Origin: Coriobacteriia bacterium
GTDB lineage: Bacteria; Actinomycetota; Coriobacteriia; WRKU01; WQUG01
Direction of reading: 5' to 3'
Length of the DNA: 51,372 nucleotides
NCBI GenBank assembly: GCA_009784345.1
Contig: WRBW01000004.1
Span: 1 to 51,372, forward strand
Positions 41,406 through 42,407 of the stretch are shown in pieces (within the stretch, counting starts at the first letter, position 1; every line of letters starts with the position of its first letter). Both the position numbers and the translations under genes were made by a program. The notes under the pieces were generated by a model. The model was not told the origin of the DNA, searched no databases, and saw nothing but the letters and a program-made list of their open reading frames with translations.

Positions 41406-42350
41406 TTACCCGAGCAGGGATTGGAGCTGCGCGATATGCTTGCTGGTGGCGCGCTTCAAAGCAGGGAGGTTGGAGGCAGCTTTGAGGGCTGCGCCGAAGC
41501 TAGCATTTGCGGCAAAGAGCTCGCGTTCGAACTTGCGGGTAGCATCCGACTTGCTGGGTAATGCATCAGCGCTGCCCGTGGTGCTAGGGTCTGGCAAGGA
41601 GCCACCACTCTTGAAGCTGCCATCTTCAATGGATCGCGCAATAGTCGCAACCTCGCGATTTGGTTTTGCACCCAGCTCACTGAGCCGCTTGCGACTTATG
41701 CGGACTTCGCCGTCGATGATTTTGCGCTTAGCCTCCTTTGAGGTTTTACCAATGGCCGTGATTCCGTCGGCGACTTTTTCTGCGCGGACAACAGTCGACT
41801 TTGCAAGACCATGTTGCCCCCCGACTATACTTGCTGTTGATCCTGCCTCAGAATTAATCAAATGTTCATTTTGAACATTTGATTCTTTTGAGCCCACAAT
41901 GACGTCCGCATCGGCACTTGCCTCAATCTTTTTGCGCCCAGCACCAGCGCGCTGACCCCCACGTATCTTCTTCGCGGCACCGTATTGCAGTCCAAGAAAA
42001 TAGGTAAACTGCAAGGGCGAAAGGTTGCGCCGTGCGATTTGAGTGGTAATAATCCAAACGATGACGTCTTCACGGGTGGGGAATTCCAGCTCGACCGTCT
42101 TGAAGGGCAGTCCGTGTTTCATCGCAAAGCCATAGCGGTTGTGACCATCTATCAAGATGTCGTGCCCCTTCCACAACACCAGGGCGTCACGGATACCATG
42201 CTCTAAGACACTGGCCTCAAGAGCTGCAGAGGACTCTTCGTCAAGGCGCGGCAACAAGAACTTGAACTCCTCGTCGATGACGATCTTTGGGGCAATGAAA
42301 TCTTCAGCAAGAACATTGGTCGCCAGATGGGCGCGAGAAGGAGCAGACAT
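41406..42350 (-). CDS. orphan ParB-like N-terminal-domain protein
   Basis: 314 aa; SVLEHGIRDALVLWKGHDILIDGHNRYGFAMKHGLPFKTVELEFPTREDVIVWIITTQIARRNLSP. Confidence 0.82.
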   Translation of the reverse strand: MSAPSRAHLATNVLAEDFIAPKIVIDEEFKFLLPRLDEESSAALEASVLEHGIRDALVLWKGHDILIDGHNRYGFAMKHGLPFKTVELEFPTREDVIVWIITTQIARRNLSPLQFTYFLGLQYGAAKKIRGGQRAGAGRKKIEASADADVIVGSKESNVQNEHLINSEAGSTASIVGGQHGLAKSTVVRAEKVADGITAIGKTSKEAKRKIIDGEVRISRKRLSELGAKPNREVATIARSIEDGSFKSGGSLPDPSTTGSADALPSKSDATRKFERELFAANASFGAALKAASNLPALKRATSKHIAQLQSLLG

Positions 42351-42407
42351 GGGACAACCTCACAATCTGTCGGAGGCGGTCCAATCGAATCGATACCCTC
42401 GATTATA
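42348..42407 (-). promoter_or_regulatory. shared promoter/leader L, copy 1 (parB-like gene)
   Basis: TATAATCGAGGGTATCGATTCGATTGGACCGCCTCCGACAGATTGTGAGGTTGTCCCATG. Confidence 0.75.

What the first reader, a model, noticed from the sequence alone, without database searches (positions are those of the whole stretch)
42348..42407. A ParB-domain gene and a PDDEXK nuclease gene 6 kb apart share a 60-nt ungapped promoter/leader
Minus-strand sequence upstream of the ParB-like gene (TATAATCGAGGGTATCGATTCGATTGGACCGCCTCCGACAGATTGTGAGGTTGTCCCATG) aligns without gaps to the plus-strand sequence 48489-48548 upstream of the YhcG-like gene (TATAATCGAAAGCATCGATACTTTTGGGCCGCCTCCGATAGATTGTGAGGTAGCTCCATG): 49/60 identical by hand count. 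Distance from TATAAT to ATG is identical, and both continue ATGTCTG. The proteins are unrelated, so the conserved unit is the cassette -10/ATCGAT palindrome/CCGCCTCCGAyAGATTGTGAGG/RBS. This suggests one regulator controls both genes, perhaps the ParB-like protein itself, or a mobile expression cassette carrying different cargo. I know of no described ParB-YhcG two-gene regulon.
Basis: partly seen in the sequence, partly recalled or inferred. Interest (0 to 1): 0.85.

Follow-up and report, generated by a model that had tools for sequence, protein, structure and literature searches.

The report
ParB-family gene leader captured by nuclease
A 60-base control segment that sits just before a family of ParB-like DNA-binding genes in a termite-gut bacterium has also been copied in front of an unrelated nuclease gene, and its RNA is predicted to fold back and hide the ribosome-binding site of both, which would tie the nuclease to the ParB-like genes' expression control.

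Summary
In detail: 49/60 ungapped identity between window 42348-42407(-) and 48489-48548(+), far beyond chance. The core GGNCCGCCTCCNNNAGATTGTGAGG has exactly four near-matches in the 1.48-Mb termite-gut Coriobacteriia genome. Three precede ParB-fold paralogs (window, contigs C33 and C5) and one precedes the YhcG (PDDEXK) gene. The fourth ParB-like gene (C7) has a divergent homologous leader; the other two YhcG genes have none. No copy was found elsewhere in Coriobacteriia. So it is the native leader of an in-genome ParB-like family, acquired once by YhcG, and not a ParB-YhcG pair regulon. YhcG's start codon belongs to the copied segment, and about a dozen extra residues precede its conserved N-terminus: a leader capture. 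Across ParB paralogs the leader is conserved (83-89%) where four-fold sites are near 47%, so it is constrained. All copies fold into a predicted hairpin pairing CCUC with the SD GAGG and UGG with CCA of CCAUG. I therefore read it as a translational throttle or switch. The trans-acting factor, including ParB autoregulation, is untested. Both ingredients (regulatory-region capture, SD-masking leader) are known kinds; the combination and genes are new.

The parts
42348..42407 (-). Leader copy 1: -10 TATAAT, leader, SD GTGAGG, start codon of the ParB-like gene
   Evidence: 49/60; genome search; four-way alignment
42348..42385 (-). Predicted SD/AUG-masking hairpin of copy 1 (38-nt core, model R1)
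41406..42350 (-). ParB-like gene (314 aa): ParB-N/CTPase-type fold plus HTH-like helical part, no Pfam ParB hit; one of 4 paralogs in the genome
48489..48548 (+). Leader copy 2, in front of YhcG
48511..48548 (+). Predicted SD/AUG-masking hairpin of copy 2
48546..49613 (+). YhcG-family PDDEXK nuclease gene (PF17761 + PF06250; PADLOC PDC-S02), start codon supplied by the leader; N-terminal extension of about a dozen residues relative to homologues
41203..41373 (+). Interspersed repeat copy flanking the ParB-like gene (downstream side)
42441..42620 (+). Interspersed repeat copy flanking the ParB-like gene (upstream side)

Best explanation
The 60-mer is the native 5' leader of a small family of orphan ParB-fold DNA-binding genes in one termite-gut Coriobacteriia species. 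Its conserved unit is a -10 box followed by a short 5' UTR whose CCUC segment pairs with the Shine-Dalgarno GAGG and whose UGG pairs with the CCA of CC-AUG, so that the transcript is made but translation start is masked (predicted, opening cost about 10-14 kcal/mol). One copy of about 69 bp (-60 to +9), with its own start codon and first codons, was placed in frame upstream of a YhcG nuclease gene 6 kb away; that nuclease is now expressed from the ParB-like family's leader. Shown from sequence: the four copies, their exclusivity, the leader's constraint among ParB paralogs, and that YhcG must start at the leader's ATG to include its conserved N-terminus. Inferred: that the hairpin controls translation in vivo. 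Not shown: what opens it. I think a protein or sRNA acting on the conserved loop/SD region, or simple low-level throttling of genes harmful in excess, is most likely; autoregulation by the ParB-like proteins is one candidate.
For: Exactly 4 near-matches in the own genome: 3 before ParB-like paralogs, 1 before YhcG. None in 40 relatives; across 400 class genomes only scattered hits at the 3-mismatch limit, with the reversed control also giving some; only C33 itself in IMG/VR. The 4th ParB paralog C7 has a homologous but rearranged leader (GTATAnTnGAGGG..TGGACCGCC..GAGGnTG..CCCATGTCTG; 0 of 2000 shuffles score as high). Leader identity between ParB paralogs is 83-89% against 45-49% at four-fold sites of the trio, P about 1e-5. 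The same hairpin topology is predicted for the leaders; the masking cost exceeds that of upstream-shuffled controls in 276-290 of 300 shuffles for the four close copies and 250 of 300 for C7. YhcG homologues start about a dozen residues later, and no other in-frame start includes the conserved N-terminus.
Against: The 4 close copies are too similar for covariation (no pair with two-sided change), so the hairpin rests on energetics and topology. Single-sequence z-scores of the four are modest (-0.9 to -1.9), and C7 is at shuffle level for total energy. Some other window genes have equally masked SDs. On the win-YhcG pair the core is not significantly more conserved than its surroundings (2/27 vs 9/33, p = 0.09), so selection on the YhcG copy itself is not proven. 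The genome is 85% complete.
Confidence: 0.6

Rival explanations
1. DNA-level operator: the ParB-like proteins (ParB fold + HTH) bind the conserved 22-27 bp between -10 and ATG and repress all the genes that carry it, YhcG included (an autoregulated mini-regulon, analogous in logic to KorB or VirB).
For: 3 of 4 copies precede the genes of the putative regulator and the 4th ParB gene keeps a derivative. The fold match to ParB/Spo0J/pNOB8 ParB-N and weak HTH matches in homologues make DNA binding likely. Conservation exceeds what a 4-5 bp stem alone needs, loop included.
Against: ParB-type sites are usually symmetric; the conserved block is not a clean DNA palindrome, and its inverted symmetry needs G-U pairs (columns 9-29 and 15-22). 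Association with the family's own genes is also what plain inheritance by duplication gives. Homologues in other genomes lack any such site.
Confidence: 0.25
2. Plain remnant: the YhcG locus once held a further ParB-like gene, whose coding region was replaced by YhcG; the leader is a fossil promoter used because it works, with no special co-regulation.
For: Homology between the two window loci stops at +9. Core and surroundings of the YhcG copy diverge at similar rates (p = 0.09).
Against: No ParB coding remnant at the YhcG locus. The SD/AUG mask is kept and is the strongest of the five (13.9 kcal/mol).
Confidence: 0.3
3. The leader encodes a conserved leader peptide (ATG GAC CGC CTC CGA CAG ATT GTG AGG, MDRLRQIVR) whose translation controls the downstream start (attenuation or translational coupling).
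For: The frame opens with ATG in C33/C5, TTG in the window copies and GTG in C7 at the same place.
Against: All substitutions inside the frame among the four close copies are non-synonymous (GAC/GGC, CGA/CAC, CAG/TAG); the YhcG copy has a TAG after five codons; no SD precedes it. The start-like triplet is explained by pairing of (C)AUGG with CCAUG.
Confidence: 0.05

Closest known systems
Regulatory switching / horizontal regulatory transfer (intergenic region replaced or captured independently of the gene; described in PMC9944727)
   Same: A regulatory segment moves without its gene and comes to drive an unrelated gene.
   Different: Here the donor appears to be a paralog family in the same genome, and the captured piece runs through the start codon into the first codons, giving an N-terminal extension.
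SD-sequestering translational leader hairpins (repressor-binding leaders, RNA thermometers, cis throttles; general knowledge)
   Same: Predicted stem pairs CCUC with the SD and UGG with the start codon context.
   Different: No Rfam family matches; no known ligand; restricted to one species in the collections searched.
Orphan ParB-CTPase-fold proteins linked to mobile elements (PMC12704722) and ParB-like regulators KorB and VirB (PMC11790492, PMC10770331)
   Same: ParB-N fold by structure comparison; multicopy; relatives on plasmids and phages.
   Different: DGHNR motif in place of the canonical GERR type, no Pfam ParB hit; nucleotide and DNA binding unknown; no ParA partner seen beside the window gene.
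YhcG/DUF1016 PDDEXK family (PMC1189080; PADLOC PDC-S02)
   Same: Both domains, intact-looking D..ELK motif, 60-69% identity to many homologues.
   Different: Carries an extra N-terminal segment and a leader borrowed from ParB-like genes.

Membership tests
ParB-fold (ParB/Srx-like) proteins | ParB N-terminal CTPase-type fold | tested here: met
   AF2 model (mean pLDDT 79) matches pNOB8 ParB-N, M. xanthus ParB and Spo0J with Foldseek probability 1.00; TM-scores are low (0.2-0.46), probably because of domain arrangement.
ParB-fold (ParB/Srx-like) proteins | Sequence match to curated ParB families | tested here: not met
   No Pfam or NCBIfam ParB hit; several phage/plasmid relatives are annotated ParB N-terminal domain or pNOB8 ParB N-like.
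ParABS partition system | ParA partner in the operon and parS sites | tested here: inconclusive
   No ParA was seen among the ORFs read next to the ParB genes; no dedicated ParA or parS search was done, so this is an orphan ParB as far as checked.
YhcG (PF06250) nucleases | DUF1016_N + YhcG_C domains with PDDEXK motif | tested here: met
SD-masking translational leader | Pairing of SD and start codon with an upstream segment | tested here: met
   Predicted in all five leaders; prediction only.
SD-masking translational leader | Compensatory base changes | tested here: inconclusive
   No two-sided changes among the four close copies; C7 keeps the basal stem with a different inner part but the model does not detect it.
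SD-masking translational leader | Expression change on melting or ligand/protein binding | not testable with these tools
   Needs reporter or probing experiments.
Regulatory-region capture | Same leader on non-homologous genes, absent from other members of the recipient family | tested here: met
   1 of 3 YhcG genes in the genome carries it; genomes of the sampled relatives that have YhcG hold no copy of the leader.

The most novel reading that the evidence does not exclude
The ParB-fold proteins bind this leader (as DNA, or as RNA at the SD hairpin) and thereby control themselves in trans across the paralogs and a captured YhcG-type candidate defence nuclease: a ParB-fold-controlled mini-regulon of four to five genes, possibly with nucleotide-dependent release.
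Probability: 0.2. Interest if true: 0.75.

Novelty: new member of a known kind. Interest (0 to 1): 0.42.

Why it matters
It is a clean within-genome example of a regulatory leader, including the start codon, moving from one gene family to an unrelated nuclease. It ties a multicopy orphan ParB-fold family, whose function is unknown, to a candidate anti-phage nuclease through shared control. It also gives a short, testable site (27 bp / 38 nt) for asking whether orphan ParB-fold proteins act as regulators.

Tried and rejected
Leader peptide: substitutions all non-synonymous and a stop in the YhcG copy. Shared parS-like palindrome ATCGAT: present only in the two window copies. Genome-wide leader: only 4 copies. 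Prophage origin of the C33 copy: IMG/VR lists the contig, but tail and lysis genes lie at 10.8-14.3 kb and the ParB-like gene at 3-3.9 kb, with host-type genes between. Generic ParB-like leader in other genomes: relatives have other leaders; G002 paralogs share a different leader found only on themselves, and several homologues have MerR-type promoters instead. Covariance-model detection of the C7 leader failed. Rfam: nothing. Four viral-contig scans with degenerate patterns gave no answer; the exact-core scan worked.

Full report
Observation. The two 60-mers are as described: 49/60 identical without gaps, expected number of such core pairs by chance about zero. The match runs from -58 to +9 relative to the ATG and stops on both sides. 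The unit that is truly shared starts at the -10 box and ends in the first codons; no -35 is shared.

Genome-wide picture. The window is contig C4 of a 1.48-Mb, 85% complete genome. The nearest relatives found by protein search and contig titles are Coriobacteriia MAGs; I take the genome to be a termite-gut member of that group (the termite source is inferred from the isolate-name series of those MAGs, see PMC7024585). The core occurs at four places with at most 3 mismatches: the window ParB-like gene, the window YhcG gene, and two further ParB-like genes on C33 and C5. A fourth ParB-like paralog on C7 (46% identical to the C5 protein) has a leader that aligns with the window leader in -10, TGGACCGCC and GAGGnTG..CCCATGTCTG but has a longer hairpin inside. 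The other two YhcG genes (C43, C1) have unrelated leaders. Forty relatives have none; 400 genomes of the class give only scattered 3-mismatch hits, with some in the reversed-pattern control as well; IMG/VR gives only C33 itself. So the cassette belongs to this genome's ParB-like family, and YhcG is the odd recipient.

What the genes are. The ParB-like protein has no Pfam or NCBIfam ParB hit, but its AlphaFold2 model matches ParB-N structures (pNOB8-like, M. xanthus ParB, Spo0J), and homologues sit on phages and plasmids. It carries DGHNR where canonical ParB has its GERR-type motif (the motif comparison is general knowledge). It fits the orphan ParB-fold proteins surveyed in PMC12704722. YhcG has both family domains and the catalytic motif and matches PADLOC's candidate PDC-S02.

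Capture. Homologues of the nuclease begin just before the segment aligned to IEGQLFGDL; the window protein has about a dozen additional residues, and the only in-frame start that includes the conserved N-terminus is the leader's ATG. The publicly predicted protein (P0121, 326 aa) starts at a later ATG and cuts into the conserved part. The YhcG leader is closest to the window ParB-like leader: same TATAAT-ATG distance and shared upstream part, whereas C33 and C5 differ by indels.

Constraint. Four-fold degenerate sites of the three close ParB paralogs are 45-49% identical, while the leader from -35 to -1 is 83-89% identical between those paralogs and 80-83% identical to the YhcG copy; 29/35 or more at a rate near 0.47 has a probability near 1e-5. 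For the win-YhcG pair, whose upstream part is also alike, the core has 2/27 differences and the rest 9/33 (p = 0.09), so independent selection on the YhcG copy is suggestive only.

Mechanism. All leaders are predicted to fold with GCCUC pairing GAGGU (SD) and UGG pairing CCA of CCAUG. The cost of freeing SD to AUG is 9.7-13.9 kcal/mol, higher than in most upstream-shuffled controls: 24, 12, 15, 10 and 50 of 300 shuffles reach it for win, YhcG, C33, C5 and C7. With four near-identical sequences there is no covariation to test. I therefore hold the SD/AUG mask as the best-supported mechanism, as a prediction, and leave the trans factor open. DNA binding by the ParB-like proteins is a serious rival and the two are not exclusive.

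Surroundings. Three of the four loci lie beside toxin-antitoxin or defence-type genes: Phd/ParE; HTH/ImmA-like plus an AbiEii-like ATPase; RhuM-Fic plus an RHH protein. The genome carries an interspersed repeat family (18 places) with two direct copies around the window's ParB-like gene. This could have aided rearrangement, but no mobile unit was demonstrated.

Noticed in passing
window 41203-41373 and 42441-42620: Two direct copies of an interspersed repeat (18 places in the genome) bracket the ParB-like gene and its leader.
   Followed up: partly
window 43029-43654: Phd/YefM-like and ParE-like toxin-antitoxin pair directly upstream of the ParB-like gene.
   Followed up: no
L047, L048, L061, L063, L064, L072 (upstream of ParB-like homologues): ParB-like homologues in several termite-gut Firmicutes and one Coriobacteriia MAG sit behind MerR-type promoters (TTGACCTTCAAGTTACTTGAAGGTTTA-like, long spacer), suggesting control by a MerR-family regulator.
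   Followed up: no
L007 and L012 (genome G002): Two ParB-like paralogs of a sister species share a different leader (ATGTGAAAAGAGGrCTGCC) found only on themselves.
   Followed up: partly
WQWL01 contigs (L047, L048, L051, L054, L055, L059, L064): One Oscillospiraceae MAG carries at least seven copies of the ParB-like family.
   Followed up: no
window 48546-49613: The public gene call for YhcG (326 aa) starts 29 codons downstream of the likely start and cuts into the conserved N-terminus.
   Followed up: yes
G000 contig C33 (L222) 10829-14282: Distal end of a tailed-phage prophage (Dit-like, minor tail protein, endolysin) next to host genes; the contig is listed in IMG/VR.
   Followed up: partly
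window 43956-48341: 1461-aa surface-type protein with a SpaA-like domain between the two leader-bearing genes.
   Followed up: no
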